Made by a program: the position numbers and the translations under genes
Notes under the pieces: model-generated
Database searches by the model: none
Told to the model about the DNA's origin: nothing
The model's input: the letters and a program-made list of their open reading frames with translations, nothing else
Source of the DNA: Caldicellulosiruptor hydrothermalis 108
GTDB taxonomy: Bacteria; Bacillota; Thermoanaerobacteria; Caldicellulosiruptorales; Caldicellulosiruptoraceae
DNA length: 64,000 nt
Assembly: GCF_000166355.1 (NCBI RefSeq)
Contig: NC_014652.1
Span: 402,001 to 466,000 of the forward strand
Direction: 5' to 3'
Part shown: one piece after another, positions 1,336 through 63,570 of the stretch
Numbering within the stretch: position 1 is the first letter of the stretch
Layout of the letters: each line of letters begins with the position of its first letter

Positions 1336-1512
1336 ATGTACGAAACAATTGTCGTGGGGTACACTTCCGATGGGTACTACGGTCCAATTCAGGCGGGAAC
1401 CTACGACGACCTGGAAACAGCTATAAGATTTCCTGAACTTAAGGAACATGTTGACGTTATAGCAGTTTATGTGTACGATTGCCAGGGAAAGCTGGTATAC
1501 CCCCGGAAGTAG
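1336..1512 (+). CDS. Unknown 58-residue protein
   Basis: ATG 1336 is preferred over ATG 1327 and 1330 because GGAGG (1322-1326) then lies 9 nt away. The product is acidic and Tyr/Val-rich, without a recognisable motif. It is the third gene of the run, and its flanks on both sides are AGTTNGC elements. Confidence 0.5.
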   Translation: MYETIVVGYTSDGYYGPIQAGTYDDLETAIRFPELKEHVDVIAVYVYDCQGKLVYPRK

Positions 1513-1514
1513 TA

Positions 1515-1561
1515 TTATCTCCCATTTGGCAGTTTGCCAAATACAGTTTGCAGGGGTGATA
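1515..1561 (+). promoter_or_regulatory. AGTTNGC element before the gene at 1567
   Basis: TATCTCCC (1516-1523) can pair with GGGGTGATA (1553-1561), hiding the ribosome site in a stem. The loop contains two AGTTTGC half-sites. Confidence 0.55.
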
Positions 1562-1566
1562 TAAAA

Positions 1567-2046
1567 ATGAATACTCTTATTCACAAACGTCCTGTTACAA
1601 AAGAAGAAATTAGCGAAGAAATTAGGAAATTTATTGACTACTTTGAAAAAGAGGAACTGCCGGTTATAGCGATATATGAAGCAGAAGACCTGATATATGA
1701 TCTTGCCTACTGGGCACAACCGGTACAGGACAACTGGCCACTCGGTGGGACAATATGGACGTACGATTTTGAACGTCAACAAAAAACGTACCTTGTACAC
1801 CAGAATAGTAAAATCGAAGAAGTGGATGGATTTGAGTTCTTTGAACTGCAAATATGGAAAGTTTTTGAAAAGTACCCGCAGAAACTTCTAACAACAAAGT
1901 ACATCATAGTTGCAGAAATGCACGAAAATGTAGCGTCAATCTGCTACACAGAAAATACCACAGCAGTCCAGAACAAGGTACTCGGGATAATCAGGGAAAA
2001 ACAAGAAATCAAGCAAAAAATTCAAAAGCTACTGGCAGGGTTATAA
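1567..2046 (+). CDS. Unknown 159-residue protein
   Basis: ATG 1567 follows AGGGGTGATA. The protein is acidic in its first half and Lys/Gln-rich at the C-terminus, with no membrane segment and no motif I can name. The end of the gene encodes half of a hairpin (CTGGCAG facing CTGCCAG, 2032-2056), so the coding end takes part in the downstream element. Confidence 0.6.
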   Translation: MNTLIHKRPVTKEEISEEIRKFIDYFEKEELPVIAIYEAEDLIYDLAYWAQPVQDNWPLGGTIWTYDFERQQKTYLVHQNSKIEEVDGFEFFELQIWKVFEKYPQKLLTTKYIIVAEMHENVASICYTENTTAVQNKVLGIIREKQEIKQKIQKLLAGL

Positions 2047-2088
2047 GCTCTGCCAGTGGTTCGGAAGTTTGCAAAGAAGGTGGTTGGC
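2032..2088 (+). promoter_or_regulatory. Partial AGTTNGC element
   Basis: A hairpin over the preceding stop (2032-2056) is followed by a single AGTTTGC half-site and the ribosome site AAGGTGG. TCTGCCAG can alternatively pair with GGTTGGC next to the GTG start. Confidence 0.4.
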
Positions 2089-2388
2089 GTGATAAAAGAA
2101 GTAACCTGGAAAGAACACCTGCAGAAAAAGATGAAAAGAGCTGAACAGAGGCACCAGAAAATAATACACAAGCCTCACCGAACGAGAAAATTTCTGCCGT
2201 GGTGGAAAATCGGGTTAAGCAAGCCGAAAATATATTTCTACTCCAGTAGAAAGAAAGTAGTAAAACAAATCACACACAGGAAAGAAAGAACTTTGGAAAG
2301 ACAACTTTTGAGCCAGTACCAACCGGAAGAAGAATTGGTATTTCCAAACACTAAGAAAATGATAGATTTTTGGTGGTTGGTGTTATAA
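2089..2388 (+). CDS. Unknown very basic 99-residue protein
   Basis: GTG 2089 follows AAGGTGG (2078-2084). The product is strongly basic, with Lys/Arg/His clusters through the first 80 residues, which suggests nucleic-acid binding; no fold is recognisable. It sits between a partial AGTTNGC element and one that ends in a terminator. Confidence 0.5.
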   Translation: MIKEVTWKEHLQKKMKRAEQRHQKIIHKPHRTRKFLPWWKIGLSKPKIYFYSSRKKVVKQITHRKERTLERQLLSQYQPEEELVFPNTKKMIDFWWLVL

Positions 2389-2390
2389 GA

Positions 2391-2457
2391 AGTTTGCATA
2401 ATACAGTTTGCCCTGTGCCGTTTGTTCAGACACTTTTAAAAACAGCACAGGGTTTTT
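2391..2457 (+). terminator. AGTTNGC motif joined to an intrinsic terminator
   Basis: AGTTTGC twice (2391-2411) leads directly into CCCTGTGC, which pairs with GCACAGGG followed by TTTTT (2411-2457). The second half-site abuts the 5' arm of the terminator, as it also does at 372, 13479 and 24082. Confidence 0.6.
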
Positions 2458-2470
2458 ATGTTTTTTTAGA

Positions 2471-2496
2471 AGTTTGCCAGAAAAGTTTGCAGGGAG
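2471..2496 (+). promoter_or_regulatory. AGTTNGC element before the gene at 2505
   Basis: AGTTTGC twice, running into AGGGAGG. No upstream anti-Shine-Dalgarno arm is visible in this copy. Confidence 0.45.
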
Positions 2497-2504
2497 GTAT
2501 CAAC

Positions 2505-2873
2505 ATGAGAGTTTTAATAAGCGTAGAAAAACTTGCAGAAAAGATTAGACCTTTCTTACCCGAAGGCATAGACGTGGACATAACAATCAGAACAGACGAG
2601 AACACATGGGAAGACTATGCAGCTTTTACTTTTGTGGCAGACCCACGGGACGAAAAAGTACTTGCAAACTTCATTAAAACCACGCTATCAGGACTCGATG
2701 AAAATGATGCCATGTTACTGAACACCTACTTTTGGGACAAAACAAAGAAACAAACTCATGAACTATCTATTCCCAAACTATCACCCCTAATATGTAAAGC
2801 ATTTGGAAGAAACAAACTGTCTGATTGCTTGCCATTCTACGAGGATAAGTTATTGCTTGTTTTTGACGAGTAG
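2505..2873 (+). CDS. Unknown 122-residue protein
   Basis: ATG 2505 follows AGGGAGG by 8 nt. The protein is acidic, with no membrane segment and no recognised motif. It lies just after a terminator, so the AGTTNGC element at 2471 must either be read through from upstream or be served by a promoter I cannot see. Confidence 0.55.
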   Translation: MRVLISVEKLAEKIRPFLPEGIDVDITIRTDENTWEDYAAFTFVADPRDEKVLANFIKTTLSGLDENDAMLLNTYFWDKTKKQTHELSIPKLSPLICKAFGRNKLSDCLPFYEDKLLLVFDE

Positions 2874-2928
2874 GCAGGACAATGTCCTGCCCTGGAAGTT
2901 CGCAAAATAAAAAGTTGGCAGGGGAGGG
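2873..2928 (+). promoter_or_regulatory. AGTTNGC element with three competing arms
   Basis: GGCAGGAC (2873-2880) pairs with GTCCTGCC (2884-2891). The same CCTGCC can pair with GGCAGG (2917-2922), which overlaps the next Shine-Dalgarno. The loop of the second option holds AGTTCGC and AGTTGGC. Confidence 0.55.
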
Positions 2929-2938
2929 TAATTTGCAT

Positions 2939-3115
2939 ATGAATTGTTGGGCATGCAACAAGAGGGAGTTTACGGTTTCTTTTGAAAGTGGCGTGAGAAT
3001 ATTTTGTTCCAACTGTGGAGAAGAGTTAACGAAAGATGAAATTGAGGATTTTTTGGATGATGTAAGGGAGAGGTTATATTACAAAAAAGTGTCGGAAACT
3101 GAAGATGAAGAGTAA
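2939..3115 (+). CDS. Small zinc-ribbon protein
   Basis: 58 residues starting at ATG 2939. Two CxxC knuckles (Cys4/Cys7 and Cys23/Cys26) form a classic zinc ribbon, followed by an acidic helical tail. Such proteins often bind nucleic acid or act as adaptors; the partner is unknown. It shares the AGTTNGC-type leader with its neighbours. Confidence 0.6.
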   Translation: MNCWACNKREFTVSFESGVRIFCSNCGEELTKDEIEDFLDDVRERLYYKKVSETEDEE

Positions 3116-3126
3116 ATTTTAGTTGT

Positions 3127-3183
3127 CTCTCCTCTCCCCTTCTCTGGCAGTTTGCAAAGAAAAGTTTGCAGGAAGGGAGAGGG
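3127..3183 (+). promoter_or_regulatory. AGTTNGC element before the gene at 3190
   Basis: A long pyrimidine arm (3127-3142) pairs with GAAGGGAGAGGG (3172-3183), which is the ribosome site. The loop holds AGTTTGC twice, and GCAAA/TTTGC can form an inner stem. Confidence 0.6.
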
Positions 3184-3189
3184 TTTGCC

Positions 3190-3624
3190 ATGTCTGATAT
3201 GCTGGAGAAAGAAGTCAAAGACATGAAAGAAGTCAAAGATGCTTTTCTGGCAACACTAGAAGAACTCTTCAACCCCAAGTACCCTGTTCAAAAACTCAAC
3301 TGGGGACAGGTATGGAAAACAATCAATGGCAAGCTCAGCAAAGGCAATTCCTACAAAAATGGGTATGGCAAAGGCAAACCATACCCCGAAAAAGACATAA
3401 TCAAACTTATAGAAGCAAGATTTGATGGTACTATGCTGGAACTTAAAGGGAACAGGGTATTATTTAGCATTATCAGAACACCCGACGGTTTTGTTGAATG
3501 TTACAAACTGACCCAGCAGTTTGAACGCACGCCGAATAAACAAGCAATAGAAGCAATAGAAAGAGCACTCGATACCGACCTTGGCAGTATCAATGATATG
3601 TTTGTAGAGATGTACGCCTACTGA
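3190..3624 (+). CDS. Unknown 144-residue protein
   Basis: ATG 3190 follows GGGAGAGGG. The protein starts with a charged helical stretch and has a Lys/Gly/Tyr-rich middle. No family is recognised. Its stop overlaps the first arm of the next regulatory element (GGCAGGG at 3625). Confidence 0.55.
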   Translation: MSDMLEKEVKDMKEVKDAFLATLEELFNPKYPVQKLNWGQVWKTINGKLSKGNSYKNGYGKGKPYPEKDIIKLIEARFDGTMLELKGNRVLFSIIRTPDGFVECYKLTQQFERTPNKQAIEAIERALDTDLGSINDMFVEMYAY

Positions 3625-3684: not shown

Positions 3685-3817
3685 AGAGTGATAATCAAGT
3701 GGAACAGAGACGGTTATCCAACGGCGAGGTCCTTGAGGAAACTAAAGAAAAAAGTTAACAGCGAAAATCTGCAAGAGGCAATAGAAGCTTTTTACGAAGC
3801 GTTGCAGGAAAACTACT

Positions 3818-4056
3818 ATGGCAGTCAACCACCCCCGAATAAATTCGGGGGCTTGCGATGGCGGTAGCAAGGCAACGGTTGACTAGGTCAAGCGGTAACC
3901 AAACCGCTACGTCCAGCGGGCTACCAAGTACCCTGGAGTGCCACCCTGGCTCCAGGCTCTACGGGAGAACCGCTCAATCCCACGCACGGTTTGCCGTGCT
4001 AAGCCTGCTGGACATGACCGAAGGGTTGAACACACTCCGCCAGGGAGGTTTACCAC
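3818..4056 (+). ncRNA. Omega RNA (HEARO-type) of IsrB
   Basis: A GC-rich, highly structured 240-nt segment sits directly upstream of isrB. Visible stems include GTCAACC with GGTTGAC, and CCCCCGAAT with ATTCGGGGG. Known IscB/IsrB systems encode the guide at the 5' end of this RNA from flanking sequence, so the guide here would be the interrupted gene's bases ending near 3817-3822. The segment also carries the isrB ribosome site (AGGGAGG). Confidence 0.75.
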
Positions 4057-5073
4057 ATGAGGTTTGTTCCTGTAGTTGATAAAGATGGCAATCCATTGAT
4101 GCCTACAAAACCGTCACGGGCAAGACGTTGGATTAAGTCCGGTAAGGCTACTCCATTCTGGAGCAAGGGAATCTTCTGTGTGAGGCTCAATATAGAACCT
4201 TCTGCAAGATATAAACAACCAGTAGCTTTGGGAATTGACCCTGGTTCTAAAATGGAAGGGTATTCAGTTAAATCAAAAGCACATACGTATCTTAATATTC
4301 AGGCCTATGCCGTAACGCATGTAAAAAGTGCTGTAGAAACGAGACGTAACATGCGTAGAGCCAGAAGGTATCGTAAGACACGTAGACGTCCAGTTAGATT
4401 TAACAATCGTAAGAATAAAGACTTACCTCCGTCAACGAAAGCACGATGGCAATGGAAACTGAGAATAGTTAAGTGGTTAACAAGAATTTTCCCTATAACT
4501 GACTTTGTAGTCGAAGACATTAAGGCTGTTACAAAACTAGGACAGAAACGGTGGAATGAATCGTTTTCACCTCTTGAAACGGGGAAAAACTGGTTTTATG
4601 CAGAGTTGTCCAGGTTGGGGAAGGTGCATATAAAGGAAGGCAGAGAAACAAAACAATTAAGGGAATCCTATGGATTGAAGAAAACAAGCAAAAAATTAGA
4701 AGAAACTTTTGAGTCACACTGCGTTGATGCATGGTGTTTAGCCAACTGGTGTACTGGCGGGCATGTTCAACCAGACAACACAGAGTTGCTAGTCATTATA
4801 CCATTGCGTTTCCACCGAAGACAGTTGCATATGTTACAGTTCGATAAGGGTGGCATTCGCAGGAGGTATGGCGGGACAAGGTCACTTGGTTTTAAAAGGG
4901 GCAGTTATGTTAAACATCCAAAATATGGACTTTGCTATGTTGGTGGACATATGAACGGTAAACTAAGTCTGCATGATATTAACACTGGTAAAAGGTTCAC
5001 ACAACAAGCTAACCCGGACGATTGTAAGTTTATTTGCTTTGCTTCATGGAGATACAAATACAAAGAGCTGTAA
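4057..5073 (+). CDS. isrB: IsrB RNA-guided nickase-like protein
   Basis: 338 residues from ATG 4057. An N-terminal PLMP domain (literal PLMP at residues 14-17) is followed by RuvC-I with Asp in 'GIDPGS', an Arg-rich bridge helix (about residues 95-120), RuvC-II with Glu in 'VVED', and RuvC-III with His and Asp in 'SHCVDA'. No HNH domain is inserted between RuvC-II and RuvC-III, which separates IsrB from IscB. IsrB proteins use an omega RNA to nick DNA. All RuvC acidic residues are present, so the protein looks active. The gene is cotranscribed with its omega RNA. Confidence 0.85.
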   Translation: MRFVPVVDKDGNPLMPTKPSRARRWIKSGKATPFWSKGIFCVRLNIEPSARYKQPVALGIDPGSKMEGYSVKSKAHTYLNIQAYAVTHVKSAVETRRNMRRARRYRKTRRRPVRFNNRKNKDLPPSTKARWQWKLRIVKWLTRIFPITDFVVEDIKAVTKLGQKRWNESFSPLETGKNWFYAELSRLGKVHIKEGRETKQLRESYGLKKTSKKLEETFESHCVDAWCLANWCTGGHVQPDNTELLVIIPLRFHRRQLHMLQFDKGGIRRRYGGTRSLGFKRGSYVKHPKYGLCYVGGHMNGKLSLHDINTGKRFTQQANPDDCKFICFASWRYKYKEL

Positions 5074-5086
5074 AGAAGGGAGGTAA

Positions 5087-5128
5087 GCGGTTTTCCTCCC
5101 CTCAATAAATTGAGGGGTGTCCAACCGC
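5087..5128 (+). repeat. Right-end hairpin of the IsrB element
   Basis: Outer stem GCGGTT/AACCGC (5087-5092 and 5123-5128) encloses an inner stem CCCCTCAAT/ATTGAGGGG. The IscB element right end (63477-63522) has the same two-storey design with different sequence. Confidence 0.65.
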
Positions 5129-5354
5129 AACACACTATGATGCTGTAGGAGTGGAAGAAGTAGAAGTAAGAGGAGAAAAGAAAAAAGTCTGGGGATACCA
5201 CACTCTGGGCTGGAGCGGTAACGAAGACATAATACAAGTTTTAAAAACAAGCGTGCTCTTTGACATGCTTCTGGAAAGATATGATGCAGGCGGACATTAC
5301 TATTTCCGCTGCAAAGAGGAAATATGAAAGACTGTAGGGCATAAAACACTTACT

Positions 5355-6044: not shown

Positions 6045-6806
6045 TCACCCGGAAATCACAACTTCCTTCTTAATCACAATTTCTATTCCTTTCTTCTTTC
6101 CAAACTCAATCACTTTTGAAGCCATTTCATGATAAAATTTCCCTTGTTCTGGATAGTTGAGCCTGCCATAGTTCCAGCGCCCGAACACTATCCTGTCTAC
6201 AAAACCAATACTTTCAAGGAACTCATCTATGTCCTGCTCAATGATGTCCGGAGTGGGGTATGGCTCGATACTGACCCACGTTTTGAAACCGCATTTGTGC
6301 ATTGCAAAAAGACTTCTAAGCCTTTCATTGACAGGTGCTGCGTTCGGTTCATATTTTCTTCTGAAATCCTCTGACAGTGATACAAGTGTTATACCAAAAC
6401 AGTTCTCCGGATGGTTTGTAACTTTTGCTACATCCGGTGTATATACGCCTTTGGTTAATGTACGCACAGGAATTCCGAAAGAATTGATAAGTGCTATTAC
6501 ATTACATGACAATTTTGTGATTTCCGGATGATTGTACATAAAAGGGTCTGTAGCAAAACACATGTTGATGTATCCGACTTTCCCTTTGAGTTTTGGCAAC
6601 TCCTTTTCCAAAAGCTCAATCGTGTTGTCTACCGGTTTTGGTTTCACCCAATCATCATAGTTAATGCTTCTAAAGCGCTTGTTCATCAAAAAAGCATAGC
6701 AGGGATATTTGCAACCGTGAGCACAGCCAAGAACATGGTTCAGGGCATAGTCGCCGTATTCAACACCGGTTCTGTACAGTAGTTGTTTCCTGATAACTCT
6801 TTCCAT
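6045..6806 (-). CDS. Radical SAM protein, SPL-like
   Basis: 253 residues. The start MERVIR at 6806 is chosen because GGAG lies 9 nt upstream; ATG 6815 abuts it. The cluster motif near residue 30 reads GCAHGCKYPCYAF, which is C-x3-C-x3-C with an extra Pro compared with the usual C-x3-C-x2-C of spore-photoproduct-lyase-like proteins. The TIM-barrel-like remainder has a 'TLTKG' strand typical of this family. It would bind a 4Fe-4S cluster and S-adenosylmethionine; the substrate is unknown. It is the last gene of the minus-strand operon. Confidence 0.75.
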   Translation of the reverse strand: MERVIRKQLLYRTGVEYGDYALNHVLGCAHGCKYPCYAFLMNKRFRSINYDDWVKPKPVDNTIELLEKELPKLKGKVGYINMCFATDPFMYNHPEITKLSCNVIALINSFGIPVRTLTKGVYTPDVAKVTNHPENCFGITLVSLSEDFRRKYEPNAAPVNERLRSLFAMHKCGFKTWVSIEPYPTPDIIEQDIDEFLESIGFVDRIVFGRWNYGRLNYPEQGKFYHEMASKVIEFGKKKGIEIVIKKEVVISG

Positions 6807-6811
6807 CTTTA

Positions 6812-6955
6812 TCATCTCCAAGAACTATACTTTTCAGTTCTTCGCATTCTTCTTTTTAGAAGACATGCTTCTAAAAACTTTTTCTTCATCATCCTTTTTG
6901 AGTATTCCTGTTTTCTTTCCTTTGCTGCAGTATACGGCAAACAAAAATCTTTCAT
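6812..6955 (-). CDS. Very basic 47-residue protein
   Basis: ATG at 6955 has GGGAGG immediately upstream and overlaps the stop of the preceding gene as ATGA. The stop overlaps the ribosome site of the radical SAM gene. The product is Lys/Arg-rich with no motif. The tight overlaps on both sides support a real, translationally coupled gene. Confidence 0.55.
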   Translation of the reverse strand: MKDFCLPYTAAKERKQEYSKRMMKKKFLEACLLKRRMRRTEKYSSWR

Positions 6956-61020: not shown

Positions 61021-61338
61021 ATGGCAAACTTTCAGCTAACATACAGGACAAAGAAATCAGCTAAAATTCACAAGATCACAATTCAAGCAAATAGTGTTCA
61101 AGAAGCACAGGAGAAATTAGAAAAAGCTATTGATTTTGTTGATGAGTCCTACGACAGAGCAGTAACAACCGTGGAACCATGGATGTTGTGGGACGGCTGG
61201 GGTATGAGTGTAGGGTGTGAAAAGTGTATTTTGTACGGTAGGAAAGCGCCATGCTGGGGAAAAGCTCAGTGTCATGGGTTCACAAATGGCTGTACGTGCA
61301 AGAAGTGTGAGAAAAAATATAAGAAAAAACTCGCATAA
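61021..61338 (+). CDS. Cys-rich small protein, 105 residues
   Basis: ATG 61021 follows AGGAGATG. The first half is an alpha/beta domain, the second has six to seven Cys ('CEKC', 'CTCKKCEKKY') that would bind one or two zinc ions. Family unknown. Confidence 0.55.
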   Translation: MANFQLTYRTKKSAKIHKITIQANSVQEAQEKLEKAIDFVDESYDRAVTTVEPWMLWDGWGMSVGCEKCILYGRKAPCWGKAQCHGFTNGCTCKKCEKKYKKKLA

Positions 61339-61350
61339 GGAGTGGTAATT

Positions 61351-61786: not shown

Positions 61787-62042
61787 AGTCAACTACCCAC
61801 CGCTCACAGGAGCGGGGCTTGTCAGCAGGGGTGGACTGCTGACAGGTCTGCCTGACGGCAGGTAGTTGAACGTGGGTGATGCTGTAGCAGTACCTGACGT
61901 TCCGGGACAACACTCCCCGTTCCGGGAGACAGCGGTGAAATCCCGCAGCCCTACACAGGGTGCTACAGCACGCCTCAGGGAGACCTACCACCTCTACAAA
62001 AGGTGCCCGGATCATAGGGCTCCTTTTACAGGAGGAAGGAAA
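61787..62042 (+). ncRNA. Omega RNA (HEARO-type) of IscB
   Basis: A GC-rich, heavily paired 256-nt segment upstream of iscB. Stems include CAACTACC with GGTAGTTG (from 61790) and GTCAGCAG with CTGCTGAC. Its 5' flank, the end of the interrupted gene, would be the guide. The iscB ribosome site AGGAGG is at its 3' end. Confidence 0.75.
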
Positions 62043-63458
62043 ATGCTATTGTTCACCATTGACAGGAATGGAAAACCGGGACATCCAACAAGAAGATTTG
62101 ATATGGTCAGGAAATTGGTAAAAAGAAGAAGAGCAAAAATCATTGGCGGTGGCGCTTCTGGCAAACCACCAGTAGTAATGTTTCTGGACAGAGAATTTGA
62201 CTATTCAAAAACAGTGAGCAGGAAACTCATCATAGTGCTTGACCCTGGATATCACTGTATAGGTTTTGTAGTATGCGAACTTAAGGGTGGAAAACTAATT
62301 GTGTACTGTACAGGGATTCTGGTTTCCAGAATCCCTGAAATCAAGGAACTGATAACAGAAAGAAAAGCACACCGGAGAAACAGAAGGTATTATTCTCGGT
62401 GCAAAAAGAAACGTTTATCCGCCAGACAGAACAGGGTTTTACTAAAATTCAAGGTGCCAAGAACAGTAAGGGATAGAGACAGGTTGAATGCTACTCTCAG
62501 ACATGGCATAGAAACCCACCTCAACCTTTACAAAAAACTCTTAAAGTTCTTTCCATTCCCAGCAGAGCAGGTTGTGTTCGTTATGGAAGACAACATCTTT
62601 GATGTCAGAACAATGACGTGGGGTAAAACAGATGGTACAGGGTATCAAAAATCACCCAGAGTTCCAGCAGAGAAGAAGTGTATTATCTGCGGTTCAAAAG
62701 AAAAATTGCAGAAACACCATTTGATACAGCGCAAATATGGTGGTACTGACATTCGGGAAAACGTGGTATACCTTTGCAGGGACTGTCATGAAGACGTTCA
62801 TGCTGGAAGAGTGTATATACCGGTGGAAGGTGTCAGGCAGTGGCGTGCACTGGGTACAGTCAATGCAATAATAGGACGTTTGCGAGAAATACCATGGTTG
62901 AAGTTTGTACCTGCATCTGATGTAGCACAGATGAGAAAAAGGCTGGGCCTTGAGAAAGGGCACGCCAATGATGCTCTGGCAACAGCAGCGGTCTTTTGCA
63001 ACTGTACAGAAACTGACAGAACACACATGATTGAGCTAACCCTGGTAAAGTTCAGAAGACACAACAGGGCAAGAATACACGCTGTAAGGGATAGGTTGTA
63101 CAAGGTTAATGGTAAGATTGTGGCGAAGAACAGACGTAAGAGGACAGACCAGAAAGAACCGTCCTTTGCAGATATATCACCACTGTCACCGGAAATTCAA
63201 AGAAAACTCAAGGTGTATCCCGGTACAAAGATTCTTAACCCACTGCGAAAAGAAACACCGACCATAGCGGGTGATGTATGGATTTACGAACCAACAGGCA
63301 AAAGGTTTGTAGCAACAGGTGTGGTATCCCAGAAGTATTTGTATTCGCCACAGCTGGAGAAAATAGTGGGGAAGACATACGTCAAACCAGAAGAGTGCAA
63401 ACGTGTACTCCGTAACGAAGGAATAGTTGTTATGTACAACAGTCTATACCACAATTAA
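62043..63458 (+). CDS. iscB: IscB RNA-guided endonuclease
   Basis: 471 residues from ATG 62043 (AGGAGG upstream). A PLMP-type N-terminal domain (here 'GKPGHPT'), RuvC-I Asp in 'IIVLDPGYH', an Arg-rich bridge helix (about 120-140), RuvC-II Glu in 'VVFVMEDN', a full HNH domain with two CxxC pairs ('CIICGS', 'CRDCHE') and catalytic 'KHHL', then RuvC-III 'GHANDALA'. All catalytic residues are present. IscB is the ancestor-type relative of Cas9 and cuts DNA with its omega RNA. Confidence 0.9.
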   Translation: MLLFTIDRNGKPGHPTRRFDMVRKLVKRRRAKIIGGGASGKPPVVMFLDREFDYSKTVSRKLIIVLDPGYHCIGFVVCELKGGKLIVYCTGILVSRIPEIKELITERKAHRRNRRYYSRCKKKRLSARQNRVLLKFKVPRTVRDRDRLNATLRHGIETHLNLYKKLLKFFPFPAEQVVFVMEDNIFDVRTMTWGKTDGTGYQKSPRVPAEKKCIICGSKEKLQKHHLIQRKYGGTDIRENVVYLCRDCHEDVHAGRVYIPVEGVRQWRALGTVNAIIGRLREIPWLKFVPASDVAQMRKRLGLEKGHANDALATAAVFCNCTETDRTHMIELTLVKFRRHNRARIHAVRDRLYKVNGKIVAKNRRKRTDQKEPSFADISPLSPEIQRKLKVYPGTKILNPLRKETPTIAGDVWIYEPTGKRFVATGVVSQKYLYSPQLEKIVGKTYVKPEECKRVLRNEGIVVMYNSLYHN

Positions 63459-63476
63459 GAACCCACTTGTTACCAA

Positions 63477-63522
63477 CAGCGCATTCATCTCCATCTTAAA
63501 GAAGATGGAGTCTTCTGCGCTG
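63477..63522 (+). repeat. Right-end hairpin of the IscB element
   Basis: Outer stem CAGCGC/GCGCTG (63477-63482 and 63517-63522) encloses CTCCATCTT/GAAGATGGAG. The architecture parallels the IsrB right end at 5087-5128. Confidence 0.65.
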
Positions 63523-63570
63523 GTTTATGATAAACACACTTTAGGGTTGTAGAGAAGAGGAGATATACAC

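What the first reader, a model, noticed from the sequence alone, without database searches (positions are those of the whole stretch)
3688..5327. IsrB element cut cleanly into a gene that can be reassembled
Joining 3817 to 5137 restores an unbroken frame. The right flank is ATGA. The element has PLMP, full RuvC residues, no HNH, an upstream omega RNA and a right-end hairpin. The predicted guide is the flank of the interrupted gene, so the RNA-guided complex would recognise the empty site and favour element retention.
Basis: partly seen in the sequence, partly recalled or inferred. Interest (0 to 1): 0.72.

Follow-up and report, generated by a model that had tools for sequence, protein, structure and literature searches.

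The report
IsrB/HEARO element splitting a mobile-island gene

Summary
The element is real and ordinary of its kind: a non-autonomous OMEGA element (HEARO ωRNA plus IsrB nickase, no HNH, no transposase) at window 3824-5136. It splits a gene (3688-5327) whose uninterrupted relatives occur in IMG/VR contigs (best 63%, E 1e-37, match crossing the junction). The empty site is therefore ...ACTACTATGGCA|ATGATGCTG (3823/5137), not 3817/5137; the 6-nt shift keeps the frame, so the frame test could not reveal it. The right edge and ATGA are supported. The predicted guide GCAGGAAAACTACTATGGCA is followed by GTCA in the occupied locus (no self-targeting) but by ATGA once the element leaves. Flank-derived guide plus NTGA TAM is published for IsrB. 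Retention by a nickase is inferred, not tested. A second OMEGA element (IscB with HNH, 61788-63526, ATGA) lies in the same window. New member of a known kind; low interest.

The parts
3688..3823 (+). 5' part of the interrupted host gene (GTG start at 3688)
   Evidence: Joined protein matches uninterrupted relatives across the junction; left flank ends where homology between element copies begins
3804..3823 (+). predicted 20-nt guide GCAGGAAAACTACTATGGCA, taken from the host gene flank
   Evidence: Directly 5' of the ωRNA scaffold; 20-nt 5' guide as in DtIsrB (PMC9581776). Expression not tested
3824..5136 (+). whole element, GTCAACC...CACACT (1313 bp)
   Evidence: Left end: start of homology with L102 and in two-copy pairs. 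Right end: position just before NTGA, as in L105/L111, L109/L113 and L102
3824..4033 (+). HEARO ωRNA scaffold (Rfam RF02033)
   Evidence: 115 bits, E 5e-23; fold of 3804-4056 has z = -5.5
3824..3883 (+). left-end imperfect hairpin, also the first stems of the ωRNA scaffold
   Evidence: DNA fold -18.1 kcal/mol, z = -5.0
4057..5073 (+). IsrB, 338 aa: PLMP, RuvC I-III, bridge helix, no HNH
   Evidence: Pfam RRXRR E 1.6e-42; 8dmb DtIsrB E 1.3e-51
5087..5128 (+). right-end hairpin: outer stem GCGGTT/AACCGC, internal loop, inner stem with AATAAATT at its tip
   Evidence: DNA fold z = -3.5; same layout as the right end of the IscB element near 63477-63522
5137..5140 (+). ATGA, predicted target-adjacent motif in the right flank
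   Evidence: Sequence; NTGA at the same place in L102 GTGA, L105/L111 ATGA, L107/L109/L113 TTGA; DtIsrB TAM NTGA
5137..5327 (+). 3' part of the interrupted host gene, stop TGA 5325-5327

Best explanation
A non-autonomous IS200/IS605-type OMEGA element (HEARO ωRNA + IsrB) inserted into a small gene of an integrated mobile island, immediately 5' of an ATGA. Transcription through the host gene or its operon (inferred) makes an ωRNA whose first 20 nt are the last 20 nt of the left flank. In the occupied locus this 20-mer is followed by GTCA, so the copy that encodes the guide is not a target (shown by sequence). When the element leaves, or on a copy that never had it, the 20-mer is followed by ATGA, which is the IsrB target plus TAM (shown by sequence plus published TAM). 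IsrB would then nick the non-target strand about 8-11 nt from the TAM and promote repair from an element-bearing copy, keeping the element in place (inferred from the TnpB model). Movement itself needs a Y1 transposase in trans, for instance one of the two IS605-type copies in this genome (inferred). The confidence given is for identity, boundaries, guide and TAM; I give the retention role about 0.6.
For: ωRNA, IsrB homology, exact left end from an 80%-identical copy at another locus and from two-copy pairs, NTGA just after the right end in the IsrB/IscB elements whose right end could be read (window IsrB and IscB, L102, L105, L107, L109, L111, L113), same-genus empty alleles reading [left flank]|ATGA, match without an indel at the junction between the joined flanks of a second same-genus element and G005, uninterrupted host-gene relatives, no other guide-seed+NTGA site in the genome with fewer than two mismatches, Y1 transposases elsewhere in the genome, one of them with an end hairpin (CATCTCCATCTT...AAGATGGAG) nearly identical to that of the IscB element of this window.
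Against: No empty allele of this exact locus was found. No tnpA in the element and a single copy in the genome, so it may be immobile. No promoter-like site just upstream of the guide, so guide expression would depend on host transcription. A nick is a weaker trigger of repair than a double-strand break. The IsrB ends resemble those of the resident IS605 only in layout, not in sequence. The right end is pinned by the NTGA rule and by pairs of other elements, not by an empty allele here. One IscB elsewhere (L011) shows no clear NTGA at the expected place.
Confidence: 0.88

Rival explanations
1. One reading: element 3818-5136, junction 3817/5137, so that the guide ends ...AAAACTACT and the element starts ATGGCAGTCAACC.
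For: Open frame after joining, and ACTATG on both sides.
Against: In the 80%-identical copy L102 homology begins at GTCAACC, and the six bases before it (ATGGCA here, AACAAT there) are not shared; the other elements read also begin at GTCA; same-genus empty alleles place ATGA directly after the base preceding GTCAAC.
Confidence: 0.04
2. A fossil: the element is a decaying, immobile remnant and IsrB is inactive or serves some host or island function (for example regulation), with no retention role.
For: Single copy, no transposase within it; [quoted passage not shown]
Against: ORF intact with all RuvC motifs, ωRNA fold and both end hairpins intact; an 80%-identical intact copy at another site shows that this lineage has moved.
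Confidence: 0.2
3. Host gene is not one gene: two unrelated small ORFs happen to read through when joined.
For: Small ORFs and a 1-in-3 chance of keeping frame.
Against: Relatives L028, L029, L030, L097 align along residues 2-106 across the junction at 52-63% identity.
Confidence: 0.01

Closest known systems
IsrB of Desulfovirgula thermocuniculi (DtIsrB, PDB 8dmb; PMC9581776)
   Same: PLMP domain, RuvC I-III, RRXRR bridge helix, no HNH, about 340-350 aa, ωRNA directly upstream with Shine-Dalgarno region at its 3' end, NTGA beside the target
   Different: A distant homologue (E 1.3e-51); the C-terminal TAM-interacting part is not alignable by sequence (alignment stops at residue 296); DtIsrB prefers TTGA at 60 C, here the flank is ATGA
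HEARO RNA, Rfam RF02033
   Same: Full-length match 1-211 at 115 bits
   Different: Nothing of note
IscB elements of the same genus (L006, L007, L015) and of this window (61788-63526)
   Same: Same left end GTCAAC, hairpin ends, ATGA/GTGA right flank
   Different: They carry an HNH and are expected to cut both strands; IsrB nicks one
TnpB of IS200/IS605 (retention / gene-drive model, PMC11870625)
   Same: Guide from flank, TAM equals insertion target, predicted cutting of the empty site
   Different: TnpB guide comes from the right flank and its TAM lies on the left (own knowledge); it makes double-strand breaks

Membership tests
IsrB (OMEGA nickase) | N-terminal PLMP motif | tested here: met
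   NPLMPTKP aligned to RPLMPTTP of DtIsrB
IsrB (OMEGA nickase) | three RuvC motifs with acidic/His residues | tested here: met
   GIDPG, VVED, SHCVDAW align with DtIsrB VDPG, VTED, THANDA
IsrB (OMEGA nickase) | no HNH domain | tested here: met
   Pfam gives RRXRR and no HNH, whereas the IscB at 61866 gives HNH
IsrB (OMEGA nickase) | ωRNA (HEARO) directly upstream | tested here: met
   3824-4033
IsrB (OMEGA nickase) | NTGA target-adjacent motif in the right flank | tested here: met
   ATGA at 5137; NTGA also in relatives
IsrB (OMEGA nickase) | RNA-guided nicking of the non-target strand | not testable with these tools
   needs purified complex
IS200/IS605-type element | imperfect palindromes near both ends | tested here: met
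   hairpins at both ends
IS200/IS605-type element | no target-site duplication | tested here: inconclusive
   no duplication at the junction inferred from copies; empty allele of this locus not found; a related same-genus element shows none on its left side
IS200/IS605-type element | own Y1 transposase (autonomous element) | tested here: not met
   only ORF is IsrB; Y1 transposases only at G000 516445 and 22653; hence at most a non-autonomous relative

The most novel reading that the evidence does not exclude
An RNA-guided nickase without HNH or its own transposase keeps or spreads an element within a mobile island, with a resident IS605 TnpA acting in trans on both the IsrB and the IscB element of the island; a nick, not a double-strand break, would be enough for retention.
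Probability: 0.15. Interest if true: 0.5.

Novelty: new member of a known kind. Interest (0 to 1): 0.25.

Why it matters
It gives a clean natural test case for what IsrB does in the cell: host gene, guide, TAM and predicted empty site are all defined to the base, and the left boundary rule (GTCAAC start, NTGA directly after the flank in the empty allele) is confirmed at DNA level for a related element in the same genus. It also shows that an open reading frame after joining is not enough to place an insertion boundary.

Tried and rejected
Similarity searches of plasmid and phage records with the locus DNA gave only RRXRR fragments in Calothrix, Stanieria and an uncultured phage. Exact degenerate patterns of both junctions in viral contigs: no hits. 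The interrupted gene of the second (IscB) element had no relatives in viral contigs or the genus, so its junction could not be checked. The host protein matches no PHROG, and only sub-threshold Pfam families. The idea that protein-family length would fix the junction was dropped, because the insertion falls in a variable loop. Promoter scan near the guide: no more hits than in shuffles. Two literature searches with broad terms returned mostly unrelated papers.

Full report
What is there. The window is bases 402001-466000 of a complete 2.77 Mb genome. A HEARO ωRNA lies at 3824-4033 (RF02033, 115 bits), the only one in the genome reported by that search. It is followed by a 338-aa ORF (4057-5073) with the RRXRR domain, whose best solved relative is the IsrB of D. 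thermocuniculi (8dmb, E 1.3e-51). PLMP and the three RuvC motifs are present, HNH is absent.

The host gene. Joining the two flanks gives a protein of 106-108 residues. Relatives of it occur in 69 IMG/VR loci and in five GTDB contigs. The four closest, L028, L029, L030 and L097 (the last two appear to be the same sequence), align along the whole length at 52-63% identity with no interruption. So 3688-5327 is indeed one gene split by an element. The gene has no relative in the 11 other genomes of the genus that were searched, so no empty allele of this very locus could be read.

Where the element ends. I compared the locus with L102, an 80%-identical copy of the element in a 96-kb IMG/VR contig at an unrelated site. 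Homology begins exactly at GTCAACC, window 3824, and stops at CCGCAA, 5130; both copies then have six bases and an NTGA (CACACT|ATGA here, TTACCT|GTGA there). Two-copy pairs within other genomes also begin at GTCAA (L108/L112, L105/L111) or GTCAG (L109/L113), and where the right end is present it runs up to ATGA or TTGA. The rule was then tested at DNA level in the same genus. For the IscB element L006 the left flank is GTTGAAGAAA; in nine congeners that have no element there the sequence is GTTGAAGAAA|ATGAA (L131-L139; a tenth, L140, has GTTGAGGAAA|ACGAA). For L007 the joined flanks match G005 at 69% identity with no indel at the junction. Hence the empty site here is ...CTACTATGGCA|ATGATGCTG (3823/5137). 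Both versions keep frame, and the hexamer ACTATG occurs on both sides, which explains the error. The insertion lies in a loop of variable length in the protein family, so the protein cannot decide. The right end rests on the NTGA rule and on other element pairs, not on an empty allele here.

How it most likely works. Shown by sequence: the 20 bases before the scaffold are GCAGGAAAACTACTATGGCA; they are followed by GTCA in the occupied locus and by ATGA in the reconstructed empty site. No site in the genome carries the 12-base seed plus NTGA with fewer than two mismatches, apart from the locus itself with GTCA. [quoted passage not shown] Inferred: the nick at the empty site favours repair from a copy with the element, as in the TnpB model (PMC11870625, PMC12477157); guide transcription comes from the host operon, since there is no promoter-like site near; movement requires TnpA in trans. 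The genome has two Y1 transposases. One, at 516445, belongs to an IS605-like element whose end hairpin is almost the same in sequence as the right end of the IscB element near 63477-63522. The IsrB right end shares the layout (outer stem, internal loop, inner stem) but not the sequence.

Surroundings. The island has a tyrosine recombinase, DnaB- and DnaC-like proteins, a single-strand-binding-like protein, genes that look like type I restriction, a DNA methyltransferase and a type II/IV secretion ATPase with pilus-like neighbours (the SSB-like and restriction assignments are by eye), so it looks like an integrated mobile element, though its exact type was not settled. A second OMEGA element, IscB with HNH, lies at 61788-63526, again with GTCAAC at the left and ATGA at the right.

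Verdict. New member of a known kind, low interest.

Noticed in passing
window 61788-63526: Second OMEGA element in the same window: IscB with HNH (frame 61866-63458, probable ATG at 62043), left end GTCAACTACCC, right flank ATGA; it interrupts a small ORF that reads on to LNRHEEKNDKHTLGL* when joined. Its ωRNA is below the Rfam HEARO threshold.
   Followed up: partly
L006 (G006:C1:2115127) versus L131-L139: The IscB insertion in a flavin-reductase-like gene lacks about 105 bp on its right compared with congeners: the element is joined to a second ATGA downstream instead of the original one. Suggests an adjacent deletion between two target motifs.
   Followed up: partly
L015 (G007) versus window 61021-61340 and about 63690 onwards: A related island in another species of the genus has a different IscB element near the same place, with flanks that look homologous to this window: repeated OMEGA insertion in this island family.
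   Followed up: no
window 354, 1028, 2067, 3153, 3653, 5384, 5723: Short repeated leader between small genes: a palindrome followed by roughly GGNAGTTTGC-AAAATA-AGTTGGCA, upstream of at least five genes; no Rfam match. Possibly a shared regulatory signal.
   Followed up: no
L108 (G210:C5) 1437-3264; window 6045-6821 (-): An IsrB truncated near residue 307 is fused in frame to a radical SAM protein; a 51%-identical radical SAM gene lies about 1 kb from the IsrB of this window. May be chance, as such genes are common in mobile elements, or an assembly effect.
   Followed up: partly
L114 (LR745208.1, 485-kb uncultured phage): A 63%-identical IsrB in a very large phage genome, and 39%-identical ones in Microcystis phages.
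   Followed up: no
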